Below, piece by piece: positions 46,769 to 56,654 of a stretch of 64,000 nt of DNA (within the stretch, counting starts at the first letter, position 1; every line of letters starts with the position of its first letter). Below the pieces are notes generated by a model. The model saw nothing but the letters and a program-made list of their open reading frames with translations. It was not told the DNA's origin and did no database searches. Source of the DNA: Methylomarinum sp. Ch1-1 (GTDB lineage: Bacteria; Pseudomonadota; Gammaproteobacteria; Methylococcales; Methylomonadaceae); the NCBI RefSeq assembly GCF_030717995.2, contig NZ_CP157743.1, positions 4,118,501 to 4,182,500 of the forward strand, written 5' to 3'. Made by a program: the position numbers and the translations under genes.

Positions 46769-47494
46769 TCAGGTTGATTCGGCGGTGTAGCTTTTAAACA
46801 AATAAGCGATTTCCTCGAGCCCGTCTTCGATCGACCAGGTCACCGCCTGAGACAATAAATCCAACAGGATCACGGCATTGACCGCTGCATCCTGACTGAT
46901 GGCAGCCTTCAAACGCCGCGCCATCGCCCGATTAACCGTTTTCAGGTTGTCATAGATCTCGGTCAAACCAGCGATATCGTAATCATGGGACAAGCCTTTC
47001 TTGCTTTTGAAATATTGGGCCAGCAAATACATTGATGTCGTCCGATAAATAGCTTCCTCTTCGCCGGATAATGGCACATGAAAACGCGCCATCGGTTTCA
47101 AATAAGCAGTATGGGGACAAGCACTGGTGGCCATAATCAACCCCAACACCGAACTGACGGCGCGTTGGGCTGTCGTGCGGGCGTTGATTACTCGATCGGG
47201 AGCGATAATGCACACGTCCATTTCCGTATACGAGGCCAAGGAAGAGCATAAATCAATCAACGGCATCAGGTTTCTCGCCACCGGACAATAGGGAGTCTCC
47301 TTTGCCTTTAATGGACAGTTGGGACATTGTTCAAAATCCAGTTTGACCCAATCAGGCAACCCGGCCTCTTCCCGGGGGATCAACGCAATAGTTCGCCTAT
47401 CGATCTTAATATCAATTTGGCTAAGCGTTTGGTCCGGCAATTTAAACTGATAACAGTAATTCAGAGGCGTGTCGTCGGTGTTTATATCCATCAA
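46769..47494 (-). CDS. Conserved-looking Cys-rich protein, unknown function
   Basis: 241 residues. A CPNCPLKAKETPYCPVARNL stretch (Cys57, Cys60, Cys69) resembles a metal-binding site. The N-terminus YCYQFKLPDQTLSQIDIKID is beta-rich and the second half is helical. A further Cys lies in TSACPHTAYL. Not recognised; the Cys cluster suggests a zinc or iron-sulfur site, perhaps redox-sensing. It lies just before the signalling island. Confidence 0.7.
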   Translation of the reverse strand: MMDINTDDTPLNYCYQFKLPDQTLSQIDIKIDRRTIALIPREEAGLPDWVKLDFEQCPNCPLKAKETPYCPVARNLMPLIDLCSSLASYTEMDVCIIAPDRVINARTTAQRAVSSVLGLIMATSACPHTAYLKPMARFHVPLSGEEEAIYRTTSMYLLAQYFKSKKGLSHDYDIAGLTEIYDNLKTVNRAMARRLKAAISQDAAVNAVILLDLLSQAVTWSIEDGLEEIAYLFKSYTAEST

Positions 47495-47688: not shown

Positions 47689-48240
47689 ATGCCCCCAGAA
47701 AAATCAGCCAGAATCCTGTTGGTCGACGATGAAACCAATGTGCTGCGCGCATTAACGCGTATTTTAAAACGCTATGAACTGGAAACTTTTACCAGCGGCG
47801 AAGAAGCTTTGTTAATAGCCAGGGAACAACCGTTCGACCTGGTCATTTCCGATTTCCGCATGCCCGGCATGGATGGCGTGCAGTTTTTGTCTCGTTTCAT
47901 GCAATTTCAGCCCGAGACGATCCGCATCATCCTGACCGGTTACGCCGATCTCGACAGCGCCCAATCGGCGATTAACGAAGCCGAAGTTTTCCGCTTCATC
48001 AATAAGCCTTGGAGCCATACCGACATCGTTAATGCCGTTCAGCAGGGTCTGGAACATAAAAGGATATTGGAGGAAAACAAGCGCCTGGCCGATCTGGTCA
48101 GGGATCAACAAAAATTGCTGGCGAAAAAGGACGCTCTATTGCAGGCGTTGGAAGCCGAAGAACCCGGCATCACTCAGGTCAACTGGGACGAAAATGGCGC
48201 GATCGTATTGGACGAAGACGATTTGAAAGATTTCGAGTGA
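47689..48240 (+). CDS. Stand-alone response-regulator receiver with helical tail
   Basis: 183 residues. Receiver domain of residues 6-125 with the acidic pocket (LLVDDE), phospho-acceptor Asp55 (ISDFRMPGMDG), TGYAD and FINKPW (Lys). Instead of a DNA-binding or enzymatic domain it has a short coiled coil and an acidic C-terminal tail. It probably works as a phosphorelay shuttle or protein-interaction switch. It converges on the HD-GYP gene with 1 bp between the stops. Confidence 0.9.
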   Translation: MPPEKSARILLVDDETNVLRALTRILKRYELETFTSGEEALLIAREQPFDLVISDFRMPGMDGVQFLSRFMQFQPETIRIILTGYADLDSAQSAINEAEVFRFINKPWSHTDIVNAVQQGLEHKRILEENKRLADLVRDQQKLLAKKDALLQALEAEEPGITQVNWDENGAIVLDEDDLKDFE

Positions 48241-48241
48241 T

Positions 48242-49582
48242 CTAATCCTGGTCTTGCTCCAAGCTCTTTTTGTTTGACGCATCGCCCAAACGCGCTTTAA
48301 TCTCCAGCTTATCGCCCACCCGCTCGCGTAATGCGACAATTTCATAGATCTTTGCCTTATCCAAGACGCAGTTTTTAAGAAATAGACGGCCATTATAGCG
48401 AATCTCATCGATTTCCATGCCGGGCTCCAATTGAGTCCAGGAAATATCGACGAGCGGACGCACGGTCTCGACTTCCATTTGCGTCAACACCTCGACAAAG
48501 GCGTCGACGACTTGAGGATCGTAAAAAGAAGCCTTCTTGCTGCGCAGTCGACTCAATACATCCGCCACCGTCATCGTTTGCCCCGTCATCGCCCCCTCCA
48601 GGAAAGATAAATAATCCCTGACTACCGCCAATATTCGAGCGCCGAGCGGGATCTGTTCGCCTGCCAGCCCTTCCGGATAGCCGCTGCCATCGAAATGTTC
48701 GAACTGATGACGAATCAACACGGCCGCGTCTCTCAGCGGCGCCATGCTTTTCAACAAAGCCTCTCCCTCAGGGGCATGACTTAAGTAACGTTCGCGTATA
48801 TCGCGAGTCATGGTATAAAAGGGCTGACTCAGCAAGCGATCGTCCAAGCCTATCTTGCCGATCTGGAATAGCAGCCCGGCATAAAGGATCGTTTTTTTAT
48901 CCTCGTCAGGCAACGCCAGTTTACCGGCCACTTTATGCGCTACCTCGGCGATATATTTTGCATGTCCACTTTTGATGCCTGGACGCATTTCGATAATGCG
49001 GGCAAAGGTCTTGATCGTGTCGGTGTATTGCTTTTTCAGGGTCTGATGGGCTTTATCGAGTTGTTTAAATGAAGCCTTCAATTGCGCGGCACGCTGTTCG
49101 ACCTTCTCCTCCAGTTGAGCATTCAGCCCCTTCAACTGTCGGTTTTGCTCATCGATAATCTCAAACAATTGCCCCCTTTCTTCGCTCAGACGTTTTTGTT
49201 CCAAGGCCCTTTTCACCAAGTCCTTGAGCTCGGCATCGTCCCACGGTTTATGGCAATAGCTGTAAATTTTTCCACGATTAACCGCGATAATCGTAGACTC
49301 CAGGTCGGCAAATCCGGTCAAAAGAATACGCACTACCTCAGGCCAACGTTCCGCCGCGCGGCTTAAAAATTCCGCGCCATCCATTTGCGGCATGCGCATA
49401 TCGGAAATGATCAGATCGATCTCCTCTCGCTCCAATACTTCTAACGCCTCCACGCCGCTCCCGGCCATCTGAATGTGATATTCGCCATCTCTGAACAATC
49501 TCCTCAAGGCTTTCAACACATTAGCCTCATCGTCGACGAATAAAAGCTTGAACGGCTTATGTTGCAACATGACTTCAGACAT
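48242..49582 (-). CDS. Receiver protein with a degenerate HD-GYP domain
   Basis: 446 residues. Receiver 12-130 with phospho-acceptor Asp61 (IISDMRMPQMDG), then a coiled coil (about 130-190) and an HD-GYP-like domain (200-345). The GYP part is intact (FDGSGYPEGL, about 297-306) but the HD pair is replaced by Phe239-Gln240 in LLFQIGKIG, and DxxDA becomes RDYLSFL. c-di-GMP hydrolysis is therefore unlikely; it may bind the dinucleotide as a sensor. A C-terminal PilZ-like stretch (about 380-430, LVDISWTQLEPGMEID) is not certain. It is encoded together with a kinase on the minus strand. Confidence 0.88.
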   Translation of the reverse strand: MSEVMLQHKPFKLLFVDDEANVLKALRRLFRDGEYHIQMAGSGVEALEVLEREEIDLIISDMRMPQMDGAEFLSRAAERWPEVVRILLTGFADLESTIIAVNRGKIYSYCHKPWDDAELKDLVKRALEQKRLSEERGQLFEIIDEQNRQLKGLNAQLEEKVEQRAAQLKASFKQLDKAHQTLKKQYTDTIKTFARIIEMRPGIKSGHAKYIAEVAHKVAGKLALPDEDKKTILYAGLLFQIGKIGLDDRLLSQPFYTMTRDIRERYLSHAPEGEALLKSMAPLRDAAVLIRHQFEHFDGSGYPEGLAGEQIPLGARILAVVRDYLSFLEGAMTGQTMTVADVLSRLRSKKASFYDPQVVDAFVEVLTQMEVETVRPLVDISWTQLEPGMEIDEIRYNGRLFLKNCVLDKAKIYEIVALRERVGDKLEIKARLGDASNKKSLEQDQD

Positions 49583-49594
49583 GGCGGACTCGCA

Positions 49595-51337
49595 CTATCC
49601 GTTAAGGGGAAAATAAATTCTGAATCGGGTGCCCTTGCCAACGGTCGAATCGATCTCTATTTTTCCATTATGATCCTGAACGATTTTATAGGTCAACGAC
49701 AAACCCAGGCCAGTGCCTTCGCCCACCGGTTTAGTGGTAAAAAAAGGATCAAAGATCTTATGCTTGATTTCGTCCGGTATCCCCTTACCACTATCCTCGA
49801 CTTCCACCCATAACCAATCAGGCTCTCGATAACCGGTGCGGATGGTAATATCCCCGAACGCCTCGATGGCGTGAGCGGCGTTCACCAGCAAATTCATGAA
49901 CACCTGATTAAGCTGGGAACCGACACATTCATAAGGCTGTAAACCAGCATAATGCTTATGAAGCTTAGCCCTGTATTTCAATTCGTTATAGACAATGTTC
50001 AATGTCGCATCAAGACCCTGTTCAATATCGAACATTTCCCGCTTCTTTGTTTCGACATGGGAAAAGTTACGTAAGTCCTGGACAATTTGTTTCGCACGAG
50101 TCGCGCCCTCCATCGATTCAATGACCAGATTGCGCAAGTCCTCCTGAATAAAATCCAAATCCAGATCTTGCTTCAATTGCCGATAGGCTTGAACCTGAAC
50201 ATGATCCGACGGCAACTGGGCCGCCAATTGCCTAGCCATGTCGCTAACTTTTTCCAGATCGCCCAAGTATTCCTGCAAGGTATGCAGATTGGAGTTGATA
50301 TAGCCTAAGGGATTATTGATTTCATGAGCGACCCCGGCCGCTAACTGGCCGATGGAAGCCATTTTTTCCGCCTGCACCAGCTGCAGTTGCGCATCTTGCA
50401 ACTGTCGGTTAAGCGCCATTTGCTCCTGTTTTTCCTGTTCCAGCTTCTCGGCCGATGCCTGTAATTCGACGGTGCGTGCTTCGACCGCCTGCTCCAGGTT
50501 CTGTTCAATGTCCTTTTGCCGGGAAAAATCAATCGCGCAGCCCATATAACCAACCAGGCGACCATTTTTATGAGTCCTCGGCACGACGGTTTCCAGCAAC
50601 CATCGAACCGACATGTCCTGACCGATCACCTGATATTCCGTTTCCATCGCCTTGTTCTGCTCGAGCATCGAGGCATAAAACTGTCGCATCCGTTCCCTGT
50701 CTTTAGTATGAATGACCTCAGACCAATGTCGATTGAGTTGCTCACAGGCCCGTCCGGTCAAAACTTGCCATTGCCTGTTGCAATAAATACGCTCGCCCTG
50801 TTCATTGCTGACCCAGATATAAGCCGGCAACGTATCCGCCAATTCCTTAAAACGCGCCTCGCTTTCCCGCAAGGCGCCATAAAGATTATCTTGCAGCATA
50901 TCGACGGTGTTTTGCTGAGCGTCGGTGTCATCGATAGGGGCCGAGGTAACCTGCGCCATCAGCTTATCCTCTCCCAGTATATGGTTTACCATCCAATTGA
51001 CCAGGAAATCGAGTAATTCATTGGTCACTTTTTCCGGTTGACCATGACAAACCGTCTGTTCCTGCTTGATTTTTTTTAAAAATGCCAGATGATTCGCTTT
51101 GTGGTTATTAAAGGCCTGAGCATCATATTGATGACTGATCATATATTGCTCTTCGGCCTCGAAATGATAATGAGTGTACTCGATCAATTCATCGAGTAAT
51201 GCAATGACTTTATTAAAATGACCGTCCAGTTTCAAACAATCATCTAACTGATTGATGATATCGATCAATTTTTTGTGCTGCCGGTCGATCCGCTCTATAC
51301 CGACATTAAAGTTATCATTCCAGTCAAAAATTGCCAT
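49595..51337 (-). CDS. Hemerythrin-PAS histidine kinase
   Basis: 580 residues. The first 130 form a bacteriohemerythrin with all seven iron ligands: His21, His58, Glu62, His79, His83, His119 and Asp124. It binds O2 at a diiron site. A PAS domain follows (about 160-275), then a coiled coil and a histidine-kinase core with His338 in [11 protein letters not shown], an N-box near 445 ([11 protein letters not shown]) and glycine boxes DSGKGI and GTGLGLS. It is thus a likely oxygen- or redox-sensing kinase. It is 12 bp from the HD-GYP gene on the same strand, its probable partner. Confidence 0.95.
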
Positions 51338-52063
51338 TGCCTCTCCCGTTGAATATCTGGCATGACGGTAAACAAAGGGAAACGCTGAATAGGTACATTT
51401 TAACTAGAATTTCCCCATGCCGACCCAGGAAAAGCTTCAATTTTCCCAATGCAATTGCCTTGATTGCTGTGAATTTCGTGATTTTCAACAAATGAGTCGT
51501 CCCAAAAAAAGCAAAAGGCAGCGCAAGTGCTCCATGATATAGGAAATCGGCAACGATACCGCCGCACTTAGATGTGTCAGTGCAACATCAAGCAGGCGCG
51601 GAGTTGCCAGGGATGTTCTCTGAAGCAAGCTGATAGTCAAGGAAATGTTTTTCGATACCAAGCTGACTCGTTAGGCCAAATCCAACACTTAAAATAAGCC
51701 GTCTCTCTCAAAGAGAACTTTAAATCTTGCCCTATCCCTAATCGAGGGACTACATGCCGTGCCGCTTTTTTCATAATATAGCAAAAAAACCTATAATTAG
51801 GCTAAGGATTGTATAATATTACCTTCTCATCAGTTTAACAGTTAGTGGAAAGTCACGTTGTCGCGCTAGCAATTATGTTACGCGACACTTCGAGGTCACG
51901 GGATTGCAATGCCAGGGAACGCTATCGCGCATCCTAACCCACTACGTTATGAATCCGTCAGTGGCATTGAGCGGAACAAGACAATCAGGCACGTTCCATA
52001 ACAAAGGGCTATGGGCCTCATTAACCTCTGTTTGGTTTTGTTGAACGACAATAAGGATTATTC
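51338..52063. other. 726-bp divergent region upstream of the mglA-like operon
   Basis: No gene seen. Several TATAAT-like hexamers lie in an AT-rich block at 51768-51820 (TATAAT at 51792-51797 and 51812-51817), possible -10 boxes of the mglA operon, with no clear -35. A GGATT site precedes the mglA ATG by about 6 bases. Confidence 0.45.
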
Positions 52064-52726
52064 ATGGCCAGTTACGAACACGAACATAATCGCTTGACGA
52101 TCAAATTAGTTTACTACGGCCCCGCCCTCAGCGGCAAAACCACAAATTTGATGCGTTTGCACGATATGCTGCGCACCGATCTGAAAGGTGAAATCATGAT
52201 CATGGAAACAACTGATGACCGCACCTTGTTTTTCGATTTACTGCCTTTAGGCTTTACCACGCCGAAAGGTTTGCTGATTAAATTCAAACTTTTTACCGTA
52301 CCGGGCCAGGTCATACACGACAGTACCCGTAAAGCGGTATTATCGCGCAGCGACGGCGTCGTATTCGTCGCCGATTCCCAATTAACACAGAGCGTCAATA
52401 ATGGCGAATCATTTGAAAACCTGGAAGCTAATGCCTGGCGCGTCGGTCTGAACTTCGATCACTTGCCACTGGTGGTGCAATACAATAAACGTGATTTAAC
52501 TGATATCATAACTAAGGAAGAGGTTTTACAGCGTTGGCGGCAAGCCCCTTGGCCCGTGGTCTTCAGTAGCGCATTAACCGGTCAAGGCGTCGTCGCAACC
52601 TTGCAAACCCTGCTGCAGCAAGTTTATGACTCGCTAGCCCCCGAATTTAACTTTCAGCAAGACCAGGGCCTGACTCGGCAGGCCTTTGTCAATGATGCGC
52701 TGGGACTTCCGGAGCAGGAGAATTGA
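52064..52726 (+). CDS. MglA-like small GTPase
   Basis: 220 residues with the MglA pattern. The P-loop is GPALSGKTT (19-27), a switch/DRTL-type segment TTDDRTLFFDLLP lies at 49-61, and the Walker-B-like TVPGQ at 78-82 is a family trait in place of DxxG. The base-recognition site is NKRD (141-144). MglA sets cell polarity and controls motility motors in Myxococcus. It begins an operon with a histidine kinase (6 bp gap) and a receiver-ATPase. The cognate GAP MglB (roadblock) is not visible here. Confidence 0.92.
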   Translation: MASYEHEHNRLTIKLVYYGPALSGKTTNLMRLHDMLRTDLKGEIMIMETTDDRTLFFDLLPLGFTTPKGLLIKFKLFTVPGQVIHDSTRKAVLSRSDGVVFVADSQLTQSVNNGESFENLEANAWRVGLNFDHLPLVVQYNKRDLTDIITKEEVLQRWRQAPWPVVFSSALTGQGVVATLQTLLQQVYDSLAPEFNFQQDQGLTRQAFVNDALGLPEQEN

Positions 52727-52732
52727 ACGCTT

Positions 52733-53989
52733 ATGTCACCGACGCCCCCTGAACAACCGCTATTGCTCGATTTTGACCGCGATCTTGGCTTAAGGGAATT
52801 ATTATCCGGCATCAATCAGCGACGCTTGCTGGAAACCCTGGAAGGCGTATTGCAAGCGCCGGCTTATCTGCTCGACAATCAAGGCAACTGCTTATTAGGC
52901 GAGGCGGATGATAAATATGCCGACAAAACGCCCATATACGGTGAACTTGAAGTTATCGGCCAGCTCTGCGCCGATGCGCCGGCCGATCAATTGAAAGTCG
53001 CCGCGAGAGTTATCCAATTGTTGTTATTCGCCAATTCCCGTTATTTGATGGCGTCCGACATCCATTTGCAAACGCAACGCGCCGATTACGAAGAGCTGCA
53101 GCACAAGCATGCCGCGCTGGAAAAATCTGAAATGCGCTACAAGTGTTTGGCCGAAAGCTTGGAACAGCGTGTGCAACAACAAGTCAAAACTATTCAGGCT
53201 ACCCAACTTAAGCTTTACGAAAGCGAAAAATTGGCCTCGGTCGGCCGCCTGGCGGCGGGCATGGCGCATGAAATCAATAATCCCTTGGGCTTCATTCTCA
53301 GTAACTTATCTACCGCGCAATCTTATCTCGACTCCTTAACGGCCATCGACCGATTGATGAAATCACCGCGAGTGACGGTCAGTATGCTGCAAAAAGGTTG
53401 GCTGGAAGAAAGTCTGGATACGATGGTCGAGGACCTGCAGGACATATTCAAGGAAAGCATCGACGGCGTCGAACGCATTGCCGCGATCATCAAAGACTTG
53501 AAAGGTTTCTCTCGCATCGACGAAGCGGCCTCTAGCCGGGCAAACATCAACGAGATTATTCGCCAGACTTGCAATATTACCGCGCCGCAACTGGCCGAAG
53601 GGGTCTCGCTGTTACAGAAGCTGGCGCCCAATATTCCTTCGATATACTGCGATGCCGCCAGCCTGGGCCAAGTTTTTCATCATCTATTACTCAATGCGGC
53701 CGATGCCGTCGGCGAGCAAGGTAAGATTCTGTTCAAGAGTTCTATCCGGGAAGGCAAACTGGCGATTGAAATCAAGGATACCGGCGTCGGCATCGCCGAA
53801 TCGGTGTTGCCGCATGTTTTCGACGCCTTTTACACGACCAAGGACGTCGGCAAGGGTATGGGACTCGGCCTGACGGTCTGCCACCACATCATCAGCATCC
53901 ACCGGGGTGAAATCAGCATCAAGAGTAAACCCGGCCTGGGCACCCTCGTGTTAATTTTACTGCCATTAACTAACGTGACTGGAAATTAG
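52733..53989 (+). CDS. Histidine kinase of the MglA operon
   Basis: 418 residues, no membrane segments. An N-terminal PAS-like domain (about 20-115, YLLDNQGNCLLGEADD) precedes a coiled coil and the kinase core. The phospho-acceptor is His179 in [11 protein letters not shown], the N-box is LLLNAADAVGEQG, and the ATP lid has DTGVGIAE and GKGMGLGLTV. Cytosolic and NtrB-like, it can phosphorylate the receiver fused to the ATPase encoded 5 bp downstream. The PAS call is tentative. Confidence 0.92.
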   Translation: MSPTPPEQPLLLDFDRDLGLRELLSGINQRRLLETLEGVLQAPAYLLDNQGNCLLGEADDKYADKTPIYGELEVIGQLCADAPADQLKVAARVIQLLLFANSRYLMASDIHLQTQRADYEELQHKHAALEKSEMRYKCLAESLEQRVQQQVKTIQATQLKLYESEKLASVGRLAAGMAHEINNPLGFILSNLSTAQSYLDSLTAIDRLMKSPRVTVSMLQKGWLEESLDTMVEDLQDIFKESIDGVERIAAIIKDLKGFSRIDEAASSRANINEIIRQTCNITAPQLAEGVSLLQKLAPNIPSIYCDAASLGQVFHHLLLNAADAVGEQGKILFKSSIREGKLAIEIKDTGVGIAESVLPHVFDAFYTTKDVGKGMGLGLTVCHHIISIHRGEISIKSKPGLGTLVLILLPLTNVTGN

Positions 53990-53994
53990 CGCGC

Positions 53995-56229
53995 ATGTCT
54001 CGATATTCTGCATTGTTCACCGGCGGCGCGGAAAGCAAACCGACGGCGGAAGAACCGGTAAAAAAATACAGCATCTTACTGGTCGACGACGAACCACATG
54101 TGTTAAGTGCGCTCAGACGCGTGTTCCGGCGAGAAAATTATCATCTGGCCAGCGCAATGAACGGCCAAGAAGCCTTACAACTGCTCGCCGAATCGGACTA
54201 TCAAGTGATCATTTCCGATTTCAAGATGCCGAAAATGAACGGCGCCGAATTATTGCGCCAGGTCAAGGAGCACTATCCCCCCATTATCCGCATTATGCTC
54301 ACCGGTCACGCCGATACCGACGCCGTCATGGGCGCAATCAATGAAGGCGCGGTTTATAAATTCATTATCAAACCCTGGAATGACGACGATTTACGGGTGA
54401 CGGTCGGCCTGGCGTTGGAGCAATACGATCTGATTGAAAAAAATCGGCAATTACTACACGAAAACCAGCATAAAAGCCGAGAAATCAAGAAACTCAGCAC
54501 GTTATCGAACACCGACAACGGTCAACTGGCTATCTTGCTGAACAAAAAAAACTTGCTCAGCGCGCCGCAACTCCAGGAACTTTTCAAGCTTAAGCAGAAT
54601 AGTAAGACGCCGACGATCAAGCTGATCCTGGACCGGGGTTGGGTAAACGAAAAAAACATCCGCGAGATCCTGCGCCGGGATTTGCTGATCGAAGAAGTCG
54701 CCTTGAGCGAGTTTCAAGTCTCGACCGAGGCATTGAATTTGTTATCGCGTTCTATCTGCGAACAAAACTGGGTATTGCCGCTGAAAATCAATCACGGCAC
54801 GCTATTATTAGCGATGGCCGATCCCATGAACATGGGCTTGCAAGCCGATTTACGCTTCTTCACCGGCCTGCCGCTGAACATCGTCATGGCCGATATTGCG
54901 GCGATCGAAAAGAAACTGCATGAAGTTTACAGGGAGTCTCCCAGTTTTGGCGACCTGGAGACGATCGTTTCCACGATCGACCCGTTTGAAACCATCGAGG
55001 TGGTCATCGAAGAAGGCGACAATATTTCGCTGGATGAATTATTGCTGGAAACCGAAAAACCGCCGGCCATACGTCTAGTCAACGCCATCATCATCGAAGC
55101 GGTCCGTTTATGCGCCAGCGATATTCATATCCAACCGCGGGCGAAGAGCTGTGTCGTGCGTTACCGTATCGACGGCATTTTGCAGGACAAAATTTTCATC
55201 CCCAGCCATTATCTCAATTCATTGGTTTCGCGTATCAAGGTGATGGCGGAAATGGACATTTCCGAGCGGCGGCGGCCTCAGGATGGGCGCATCACCGTCA
55301 AGACGCCGATGCGCATCATCGATTTGCGTATCTCCAGCCTACCGGTCATCAACGGCGAAAAGGTGGTGATGCGCATCCTGGACCGCAATGCCTCGGTCAA
55401 GCGCCTAAACCAACTAGGCTTCAGCGCCGGCGACCTGGAAAAAGTCACGCGCCTGATTGGCAAGCCGCAAGGCATGATTCTGGCGACCGGCCCGACCGGA
55501 AGCGGCAAAACCACAACGCTTTACGCCTTACTGCAGCAGGGCATCACGGCGGAAAAAAATTATGTCACGATCGAAGAGCCGGTCGAGTATTATCTTGATG
55601 CGGCCAGTCAGATTAATGTCAAAAGTCATATCGACTTCACCTTCCCGGTCGCGCTGAGAGCCATCTTACGACAAGACCCGGATGTTATCTTATTAGGTGA
55701 AATCCGCGACGAAGAAACCGCCGAAGTAGCTTTCCAGGCCGCATTAACAGGCCACCTGGTCTTCTCGACCCTGCACAGCAATTCGTCCATTTCCACAATC
55801 GCCCGGCTTTTTGATTTAGGCTTGAAACCCTATATTATCGCCAGTACTCTTGAAGCGGTAATTTCCCAGCGCTTGCTGCGCCGTATTTGCCCGCATTGCT
55901 GTCAGCCGGTTCAAGTCGATAGCGAGACACTCCGGCAACTGGGGCCTTTATTTACCGGGAATAAGAAGCCTTTTCATCATGGTAAGGGCTGCGAACAATG
56001 CAACCATAGCGGCTATCAAGGGCGCATCAGCCTTTATGAAATATTGATGCCGAATGAAGAATTACGCGATTTAATTTCGACGCAAGCAAGTCAAAGAGAG
56101 ATTAAAGCCGCCGCCCTCAAAAACGGCTATCTATCATTGCTGGAAGACGCCCTGGAAAAAGTCGCCGTCGGCCTCACCAGCTGCGAAGAGGTCTTACGCG
56201 TTCTGGGACCACAGGATTTTGATCACTAA
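53995..56229 (+). CDS. Receiver domain fused to a PilB/GspE-type secretion ATPase
   Basis: 744 residues. Receiver 25-145 with phospho-acceptor Asp75 (IISDFKMPKMNG), Thr103 and Lys126. A helical, MshEN/GspE-N-like segment (about 180-315) follows, then a GspE ATPase. Walker A GPTGSGKTTT is at 499-508, the Asp box RQDPDVILLGEIRDEE near 559-574 and the His box GHLVFSTLHSN near 586-596. Zinc ligands are the pairs CPHC (632-635) and CEQC (666-669). PilB/GspE motors normally assemble pili or secretion pseudopili; here motor activity appears tied to phosphorylation. No pilus or secretion partner genes lie nearby. Confidence 0.95.
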   Translation: MSRYSALFTGGAESKPTAEEPVKKYSILLVDDEPHVLSALRRVFRRENYHLASAMNGQEALQLLAESDYQVIISDFKMPKMNGAELLRQVKEHYPPIIRIMLTGHADTDAVMGAINEGAVYKFIIKPWNDDDLRVTVGLALEQYDLIEKNRQLLHENQHKSREIKKLSTLSNTDNGQLAILLNKKNLLSAPQLQELFKLKQNSKTPTIKLILDRGWVNEKNIREILRRDLLIEEVALSEFQVSTEALNLLSRSICEQNWVLPLKINHGTLLLAMADPMNMGLQADLRFFTGLPLNIVMADIAAIEKKLHEVYRESPSFGDLETIVSTIDPFETIEVVIEEGDNISLDELLLETEKPPAIRLVNAIIIEAVRLCASDIHIQPRAKSCVVRYRIDGILQDKIFIPSHYLNSLVSRIKVMAEMDISERRRPQDGRITVKTPMRIIDLRISSLPVINGEKVVMRILDRNASVKRLNQLGFSAGDLEKVTRLIGKPQGMILATGPTGSGKTTTLYALLQQGITAEKNYVTIEEPVEYYLDAASQINVKSHIDFTFPVALRAILRQDPDVILLGEIRDEETAEVAFQAALTGHLVFSTLHSNSSISTIARLFDLGLKPYIIASTLEAVISQRLLRRICPHCCQPVQVDSETLRQLGPLFTGNKKPFHHGKGCEQCNHSGYQGRISLYEILMPNEELRDLISTQASQREIKAAALKNGYLSLLEDALEKVAVGLTSCEEVLRVLGPQDFDH

Positions 56230-56249
56230 CAATCGATGCACATGAGTCT

Positions 56250-56654
56250 ATGAAGAAAATCGCCGCTGAATTGCAAGGGCTCATCGCCCTGTTTGACGCC
56301 TCCTTTCCGAAAAAATGTTCTGTTTGCGGCCGGGAATATCATAATGCACAACAATTCTTTCAAGAGACTAAGGAGTTGCCGACAGGCAAGTCATGTTTAA
56401 AAGAGGCCATAGAAGATGACGGCACCGCAGTCGTCGAGGTATTCAGAAACTGCGCATGCGGTTCGACGCTGATGGATGAATTCAGCAACCGCCGAGACAC
56501 GACCGAACATGGCCGATTGCGGCGAAAAAAATTTTCCGAGCTGCTGAACAGGTTGACCGAACAAGGTCTGGACAAACGGGTCGCCCGCCGCGAGTTGATC
56601 AACCTACTGCACGGCGAAAAAAGCAAAATCCTGCATGACCTGATGCAGAAATGA
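56250..56654 (+). CDS. Small Cys-rich protein at the end of the MglA/ATPase operon
   Basis: 134 residues. A CSVCGREYHN pair (Cys23, Cys26) and CACG (Cys69, Cys71) look like a zinc site. The C-terminal half is basic and helical (RLRRKKFSELLNRL, then RRELINLL). No known family is recognised. It starts 20 bp after the ATPase stop, so it is probably co-expressed and could be an adaptor or regulator of the motor. Confidence 0.72.
   Translation: MKKIAAELQGLIALFDASFPKKCSVCGREYHNAQQFFQETKELPTGKSCLKEAIEDDGTAVVEVFRNCACGSTLMDEFSNRRDTTEHGRLRRKKFSELLNRLTEQGLDKRVARRELINLLHGEKSKILHDLMQK

What the first reader, a model, noticed from the sequence alone, without database searches (positions are those of the whole stretch)
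47689..56654. Signalling island with an MglA GTPase, two-component kinase and a receiver-fused PilB/GspE ATPase
The sequence shows a tight + strand operon: MglA-like GTPase, histidine kinase, receiver fused to a secretion/pilus ATPase, then a small Cys-rich protein, with gaps of 5-20 bp. It is faced by a minus-strand pair, a hemerythrin-PAS kinase and a receiver with a degenerate HD-GYP domain, plus a stand-alone receiver. Known biology: MglA sets polarity of motility motors in Myxococcus and PilB/GspE drive pili or secretion. Inference: phosphorylation of the receiver gates the ATPase, and oxygen or redox input arrives through the hemerythrin kinase. No pilin, PilC or secretin gene is in the window, so the motor may serve a distant apparatus or act as a regulatory decoy.
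Basis: partly seen in the sequence, partly recalled or inferred. Interest (0 to 1): 0.9.

Follow-up and report, generated by a model that had tools for sequence, protein, structure and literature searches.

The report
GTPase–kinase island with signal-gated pilus motor
A small set of genes kept together in many genera of proteobacteria joins a Ras-like switch protein, two-component signalling proteins and a pilus-type motor that carries its own signal-receiving domain, which suggests that these cells can switch on an extra pilus motor in response to a signal, perhaps oxygen or nitric oxide.

Summary
The + strand operon mglA–kinase–receiver-MshEN-T2SSE–Cys protein (gaps 6, 5, 20 bp) faces a hemerythrin-PAS kinase and a receiver with a degenerate HD-GYP domain, plus a lone receiver. 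It is not a local curiosity: orthologues of the receiver-fused ATPase occur in Methylomonas, Methylotuvimicrobium, Azonexus, Zoogloea, Pseudomonas, Hahella, Marinobacter and Halomonadaceae. In 47 of 47 loci with 2.5 kb of upstream DNA, MglA lies within 2.5 kb; a kinase lies within 400 bp in 46. In 369 class genomes, 7 of 7 with the ATPase have MglA on the same contig. Phospho-acceptor, motor and GTPase residues are conserved. The ATPase forms its own clade and fails the PilB, GspE and TfpB cut-offs. Of 29 carrier genomes tested, 29 have a true PilB, 26 a T2SS GspE, and 22 no roadblock (MglB-type) match. Best explanation: a phosphorylation-gated accessory extension motor for the resident type IV pilus, used like TfpB and coupled to a Group 1 MglA that mostly lacks MglB. 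Anatomy and co-inheritance are shown; phosphotransfer, MglA contact and pilus output are inferred. Ten literature searches found no description of the operon. New variant of a known kind.

The parts
52064..52726 (+). MglA, Group 1-type Ras-like GTPase (220 aa)
   Evidence: The four solved sequences matched are all named MglA (that they come from Myxococcus and Thermus is recalled). GPAxSGKT (Ser in 48 of 49, the rest in 49 of 49), Arg53-Thr54, TVPGQ 78-82 and NKxD 141-144 in 49 of 49 aligned sequences. The only match to this protein in the genome at E 0.001.
52733..53989 (+). Soluble histidine kinase (418 aa) with a small alpha/beta N-terminal domain of unknown ligand and a long signalling helix
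   Evidence: HisKA and HATPase_c; His179 invariant in 32 aligned sequences; model mean pLDDT 87.9; a kinase of this type within 400 bp of the ATPase gene in 46 of 47 loci.
53995..56229 (+). Receiver - helical linker - MshEN - T2SSE extension-type ATPase (744 aa)
   Evidence: Response_reg 27-136, MshEN 234-315, T2SSE 354-735. In 53 aligned sequences: D75, T103, K126, K505, E569, H587, H594, C632, C635, C666, C669 in 53; D31 in 52 (1 gap); D32 in 51 (1 Ala, 1 gap). Walker A G499-K505 near-invariant. Own clade.
54382..54507 (+). Predicted continuous helix (aa 130-171) joining receiver to a four-helix bundle
   Evidence: AlphaFold2 model of aa 1-350, mean pLDDT 79.2; blocks 151-180 of the helix region are at 61-81.
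54520..54702 (+). Degenerate MshEN c-di-GMP motif region (aa 176-236)
   Evidence: First motif: Arg site 177 is Gln in 44 of 53 and Arg in 9; Gly site 179 is Ala in 39 and Gly in 11. Second motif: Arg site 206 and Gly site 208 hold neither residue in 53 of 53. Motif as in PMC5013675.
56250..56654 (+). Small protein with CxxC and CxCG pairs (134 aa), accessory, not core
   Evidence: No Pfam or NCBIfam match; relatives near 3 of 41 loci; both Cys pairs kept in all 4 aligned members.
47689..48240 (+). Lone receiver with a conserved C-terminal PGITxV tail
   Evidence: Response_reg; PGIT/PGLT tail in 23 of 25 aligned members (19 by a strict pattern, 4 more by eye); relative near 23 of 41 loci.
48242..49582 (-). 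Receiver with degenerate HD-GYP domain, NosR-family
   Evidence: NF053512 497.7 bits against cut-off 400; HD pair FQ here, kept as HD in 9 of 28 aligned members; relative near 27 of 41 loci.
49595..51337 (-). Hemerythrin-PAS histidine kinase (580 aa), candidate O2/NO/redox input
   Evidence: Hemerythrin, PAS, HisKA, HATPase_c; bacteriohemerythrin NF033749 110 bits against cut-off 84.
46769..47494 (-). DUF6901 protein, accessory neighbour
   Evidence: PF21842, 240.1 bits; relative near 8 of 41 loci.

Best explanation
The core (MglA, kinase, receiver-ATPase) is a signal-gated accessory extension motor for the cell's own type IVa pilus. Proposed steps: the adjacent soluble kinase phosphorylates Asp75 of the receiver fused to the motor, and input kinases such as the hemerythrin kinase feed the other receivers of the island. 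The signal passes through the long helix to the MshEN bundle and frees or assembles the ATPase hexamer, which then engages the pilus platform made by genes elsewhere, as the unlinked TfpB motor does beside PilB in Acinetobacter. MglA-GTP recruits or licenses the motor at a pilus site, in most carriers without an MglB-type partner. The lone receiver and the NosR-type receiver are further regulators, in positions that recall RomR and degenerate HD-GYP regulators (comparison from recall). Shown: gene order, co-inheritance, conserved active-site residues, separate clade, PilB in every carrier tested. Inferred: every protein-protein step and the pilus output.
For: Order conserved: MglA within 2.5 kb in 47 of 47 loci with 2.5 kb of upstream DNA (46 on the same strand); kinase within 400 bp in 46 of 47; commonest spacing a 4-bp overlap, 10 of 46, though some spacings reach 240 bp. 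7 of 7 ATPase genomes in a 369-genome class sample carry MglA on the same contig and strand. Distance matrices of MglA, kinase and ATPase correlate (r 0.84-0.90 over 48 sequences; expected for any linked, vertically inherited set). Catalytic and phospho-acceptor residues conserved. PilB over its cut-off in 29 of 29 carriers against 252 of 369 in the class sample; T2SS GspE over its cut-off in 26 of 29. No T2SSF gene beside the fusion in the own genome. Precedents: TfpB as an unlinked second extension motor (PMC8213720, passages); MglA stimulates T4P formation in Myxococcus (PMC7519303, PMC7668184, search listings only).
Against: No experiment. No platform, pilin or secretin gene recurs beside the operon among the families clustered (families in at least 4 loci). 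29 of 29 with PilB is only mildly unusual when 68% of the class sample has it, and the carriers include near-duplicates (for example two Vreelandella utahensis records). The protein fails the PilB, GspE and TfpB cut-offs, so its platform is not identified. The recurrent neighbours with a recognised function are signalling proteins, which also fits a pure signalling role. Phosphotransfer from this kinase to this receiver is assumed from adjacency; several receivers compete. 60 near relatives have PilB-type ATPases and, but for one, no full-length fusion, so it is dispensable.
Confidence: 0.5

Rival explanations
1. The ATPase is a signalling platform, not a filament motor: a hexamer that collects phosphorylated receivers and MglA and whose output is regulation of biofilm or c-di-GMP through the NosR-type receivers, without touching a pilus.
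For: Recurrent neighbours with a recognised function are signalling proteins; no T2SSF gene is linked in the own genome; the MshEN c-di-GMP site is degenerate in most members.
Against: The motor residues, including Walker A Lys, catalytic Glu, His boxes and the Cys4 site, are kept in 53 of 53, which a scaffold would not need; the NosR-type partner was not found near 14 of 41 loci and has lost its HD pair in 19 of 28 aligned members.
Confidence: 0.2
2. The protein is an inhibitor or modulator of PilB or TfpB: it forms mixed hexamers or competes for the platform, so the signal turns pili off or shortens them.
Against: Catalytic residues conserved; it forms its own clade with a long stem, which suggests its own hexamer.
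Confidence: 0.13
3. It powers or boosts the type II secretion system under signal control.
For: Both kinases resemble, below its cut-off of 450, an NCBI kinase subfamily named T2SS_HK (326.2 and 195.3 bits); the GspE score is about as good as the PilB score; 26 of 29 carriers have T2SS GspE.
Against: Three carriers have no GspE over the cut-off: G159 (73% complete), G289 (99% complete) and the Azonexus genome G429 (completeness not told); a GspE just under the cut-off is not excluded. PilB is in 29 of 29.
Confidence: 0.1
4. The genes are neighbours by accident or serve separate pathways.
For: Flanking kinases, DUF6901 and the Cys protein come and go.
Against: 47 of 47 and 46 of 47 conservation of the core; 7 of 7 co-occurrence.
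Confidence: 0.03

Closest known systems
TfpB of Acinetobacter baylyi (NF053534; PMC8213720, passages seen)
   Same: Extension-type ATPase encoded away from pilC and used beside PilB; clade separate from PilB and GspE.
   Different: The window protein carries a receiver and sits with MglA and a kinase (that TfpB has none of these is recalled); it scores 448.1 against the TfpB cut-off 850, and the genome has its own TfpB.
MglA/MglB/RomR polarity module of Myxococcus xanthus (PMC4316618 passages; PMC3441718, PMC7519303 listings)
   Same: Group 1 MglA with intrinsic Arg finger, receiver proteins, T4P among the outputs.
   Different: There mglA is not near its receiver partners (PMC4316618) and MglB is the GAP; here GTPase, kinase, receivers and motor are one island, and 22 of 29 carriers have no Robl_LC7 match at E 0.001.
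Actinobacterial conservons (CvnABCD; PMC4316618 passages, PMC13343842 listing)
   Same: MglA-type GTPase in an operon with a histidine kinase.
   Different: No roadblock gene in the window; GTPase is Group 1, not Group 2; the conservon has no response regulator (PMC4316618), here the output is a receiver-fused ATPase.
PilB / GspE / MshE
   Same: MshEN plus T2SSE architecture and motor motifs.
   Different: N-terminal receiver, degenerate MshEN c-di-GMP motif, below PilB and GspE cut-offs, no platform gene adjacent in the own genome.
NosR-type receiver-HD-GYP (NF053512; PMC12570481, listing only)
   Same: Whole-protein score over the cut-off.
   Different: HD pair lost in the window and in 19 of 28 aligned members, window included.

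Membership tests
PilB (TIGR02538) | Score over curated cut-off 675.65 | tested here: not met
   537.2 bits; the own PilB scores 869.1
GspE (TIGR02533) | Score over curated cut-off 630.25 | tested here: not met
   534.8 bits; the own GspE scores 659.5
TfpB (NF053534) | Score over curated cut-off 850 | tested here: not met
   448.1 bits; the own TfpB scores 867.6
Extension-type secretion ATPase (T2SSE superfamily) | T2SSE domain with Walker A, catalytic Glu, His boxes, Cys4 site | tested here: met
   PF00437 418.7 bits; K505, E569, H587, H594, C632, C635, C666, C669 in 53 of 53
MshEN c-di-GMP receptor | Two RLGxx..G..LxxxLxxQ motifs (PMC5013675) | tested here: not met
   Window: best total 10 of 22 motif sites. 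First-motif Arg kept in 9 of 53 and Gly in 11 of 53; second-motif Arg and Gly in 0 of 53. Binding was not measured, and the paper says that a perfect motif may not be required
Active response regulator receiver | Asp pair, phospho-acceptor Asp, Thr, Lys | tested here: met
MglA Group 1 (PMC4316618) | Arg beside the G2 Thr and TVPGQ in G3 | tested here: met
   R53-T54 and T78-Q82 in 49 of 49 sequences
MglA/MglB module | MglB-type roadblock protein in the same genome | tested here: inconclusive
   Own genome has 6 unlinked Robl_LC7 matches; 22 of 29 carriers have none at E 0.001
Conservon | Roadblock (CvnB) gene beside GTPase and kinase | tested here: not met
   None of the 6 Robl_LC7 matches of the genome lies in the window
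Conservon | CvnC gene beside GTPase and kinase | not tested
   No CvnC model was searched
NosR-family HD-GYP response regulator (NF053512) | Score over cut-off 400 | tested here: met
   497.7 bits
Catalytic HD-GYP phosphodiesterase | HD metal-binding pair | tested here: not met
   FQ in place of HD
Bacteriohemerythrin (NF033749) | Score over cut-off 84 | tested here: met
   110 bits for aa 4-129 of the kinase; His/Glu/Asp ligand pattern looks complete by eye, ligand set recalled

The most novel reading that the evidence does not exclude
A self-contained polarity-and-motor switch: a Ras-like MglA that works without MglB, controlled by two-component receivers, that directly loads a phospho-gated pilus motor, so that an environmental signal chooses which extension motor drives the pilus and where. 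The kinase or a receiver in the island would be the missing GAP or GEF.
Probability: 0.28. Interest if true: 0.87.

Novelty: new variant of a known kind. Interest (0 to 1): 0.66.

Why it matters
How MglA-type GTPases reach pilus motors, and how T4P extension motors are chosen and gated by signals, are open questions studied mainly in Myxococcus, Pseudomonas and Acinetobacter. A single conserved operon that holds GTPase, kinase, receiver and motor, present in environmental strains such as Methylotuvimicrobium buryatense 5G (L042), makes both questions directly testable. It also points to control of an extension ATPase by phosphorylation rather than by c-di-GMP.

Tried and rejected
Kinase N-terminal domain as a hidden MglB: the model has a small alpha/beta domain before a long helix. 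The 50 rows shown of 772 Foldseek matches are histidine kinases or kinase-containing chains, so the small domain is barely tested by them. A profile comparison with three own roadblock proteins gave no match (probability 0.2; shallow profiles, so weak evidence). Not supported, not excluded.

MshEN as a c-di-GMP switch: set aside as the main input on motif loss. Limits: 9 of 53 members keep the first Arg and 11 the first Gly; the own PilB and GspE score the same 10 of 22 on the crude count, and only 8 of 28 other T2SSE proteins of relatives reach 14 or more, so the count separates clear keepers only.

Receiver-ATPase as an odd PilB or GspE: rejected by cut-offs and tree. The tree used 15 fusion rows (window and 14 of the 54 orthologues) among 61 rows, quick method, SH-aLRT only, with several long branches; only the clade itself is trusted, not its sister group.

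MglA-only genomes: 2 of 9 MglA-positive class genomes lack the linker-MshEN match. In G394 (L134) two MglA fragments are followed by a match to residues 645-740 of the ATPase, behind a lone-receiver relative, which reads as a decayed copy. In G096 (L133) an MglA match with an internal gap lies within 6 kb of kinases and a receiver-HD gene, on the other strand. Neither was mended or read through.

VIA-align on the aa 1-350 model showed receiver-containing chains only in its 50 rows, so the MshEN fold rests on the Pfam hit and the helix pattern.

Promoter or transcript evidence for the operon was not sought; operon is inferred from spacing.

Literature searches that found no description of the operon: (open-licence PMC full text only; listings read, and passages of four papers). 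The MshEN paper says that MshEN is found with receivers in general (PMC5013675, passages); its supplement was not read, so this fusion may be listed there. PMC4316618 says that Group 1 MglA neighbourhoods vary widely (passages); its supplement was not read.

Full report
What is there. The window holds a + strand operon-like set mglA, kinase, receiver-MshEN-T2SSE, Cys protein, with gaps of 6, 5 and 20 bp, and a divergent pair (hemerythrin-PAS kinase, receiver-HD_5) with a lone receiver behind it.

It is a conserved unit. A scan of GTDB contigs with the fusion found 102 relatives and kept the best 80 loci. Of these, 54 carry a fusion orthologue at 50% identity or more over at least 75% of its length, from Methylococcales, Azonexus, Zoogloea, Pseudomonas, Hahella, Marinobacter, Vreelandella, Aliikangiella and others. 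Among 47 with at least 2.5 kb upstream, MglA lies within 2.5 kb in 47 (46 on the same strand) and a kinase of the same type lies within 400 bp in 46; the commonest kinase-fusion spacing is a 4-bp overlap (10 of 46; start codons chosen mechanically, some spacings are over 100 bp). Among 41 with 4.5 kb on both sides, a NosR-type receiver is within 4.5 kb in 27, the lone receiver in 23, a kinase similar to at least the C-terminal part of the hemerythrin kinase in 29, and one similar over at least 95% of its length in 6; within 8 kb DUF6901 is near 8 and the Cys protein near 3. So the core is MglA-kinase-fusion; receivers and a second kinase are frequent; hemerythrin, DUF6901 and the Cys protein are optional.

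Independent sample. In 369 genomes drawn from the class (own genome included), 9 have an MglA match at E 1e-20 and 7 have the fusion's linker-MshEN region at E 1e-15; all 7 have both on one contig and strand, Fisher p 2e-13 without correction for kinship. The 2 MglA-only cases look like decayed or rearranged relatives. Among 60 near relatives only one (same family, other genus) shows the full fusion, so the island is patchy.

Parts look active. MglA has the Arg53-Thr54 and TVPGQ marks of Group 1 as defined in PMC4316618, in 49 of 49 sequences. The fusion keeps Asp75, Thr103, Lys126, Walker A Lys505, Glu569, His587, His594 and the four Cys in 53 of 53, and the acidic pair in 52 and 51. The MshEN part has a degenerate c-di-GMP motif: the second motif's Arg and Gly are kept in 0 of 53, the first motif's in 9 and 11. 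The model of aa 1-350 shows receiver, one helix 130-171 and a four-helix bundle (mean pLDDT 79.2).

What motor is it. Fifteen fusion rows form one clade with SH-aLRT 100 and a long stem. The window protein fails the PilB, GspE and TfpB cut-offs. The own genome has a true PilB, a true GspE and a true TfpB besides it, and 14 T2SSE matches, 13 over the cut-off. T2SSF genes lie beside PilB and GspE but not beside the fusion or TfpB. Of 29 carrier genomes, 29 have PilB over its cut-off (background 252 of 369), 26 have GspE over its cut-off, 7 have a Robl_LC7 protein.

Mechanism. The closest working precedent is TfpB, an unlinked second extension motor in Acinetobacter (PMC8213720, passages). The receiver offers gating by phosphorylation, the kinase next door the phosphate, the hemerythrin kinase one of several possible inputs, and MglA a way to place or license the motor, as MglA promotes T4P in Myxococcus (PMC7519303, listing). 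I give this 0.5. Rivals are a signalling platform (0.2), a PilB/TfpB modulator (0.13) and a T2SS motor (0.1).

Novelty. Each family is known, and the MshEN paper notes receiver associations in general. The operon, its spread, and a Group 1 MglA mostly without an MglB-type match were not described in the listings and passages seen in the ten searches named under Tried and rejected; the review on PilB cofactors holds neither the word receiver nor MglA in its main text (PMC11656802).

Noticed in passing
own genome C2:1936517 region, L139:6912-8690: An orphan TfpB (867.6 bits, over the 850 cut-off) lies beside genes that look like formylmethanofuran dehydrogenase (recognised by eye from protein starts), with no T2SSF match near.
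   Followed up: partly
own genome C2:4266242, 2432116, 1629521, 1719040, 2709539, 1630416: Six Robl_LC7 (MglB-type) matches although only one match to this MglA was found; two are 120-aa proteins 81% identical to each other (L135:5213-5575, L136:7447-7809), far from mglA.
   Followed up: partly
48151-48228: The lone receiver ends in a tail PGITxV that is present in 23 of 25 aligned members; function unknown, may be a docking peptide.
   Followed up: partly
53995-54030: The fusion begins with a short motif like (Y/F)xSLFxG before the receiver, kept in most aligned members; a candidate binding peptide.
   Followed up: partly
L134:6549-7236: Remnant in another genome in which MglA fragments are followed by a C-terminal part of the receiver-ATPase, apparently a decayed copy of the operon.
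   Followed up: partly
L135:13799-17135: A further extension-type ATPase with an N-terminal extension that looks PilZ-like (by eye), next to a T2SSF gene and near pseudopilin-like genes in the own genome.
   Followed up: no
46769-47494: DUF6901 (PF21842) proteins recur beside this island (8 of 41 loci) with a conserved QCxxCPL motif; may belong to the same regulon.
   Followed up: no
48242-49582 and its relatives: The HD pair of the NosR-type partner is kept in 9 of 28 aligned members and replaced in several different ways in the rest (YN 10, HE 3, six others once each), so catalysis may have been lost more than once.
   Followed up: partly
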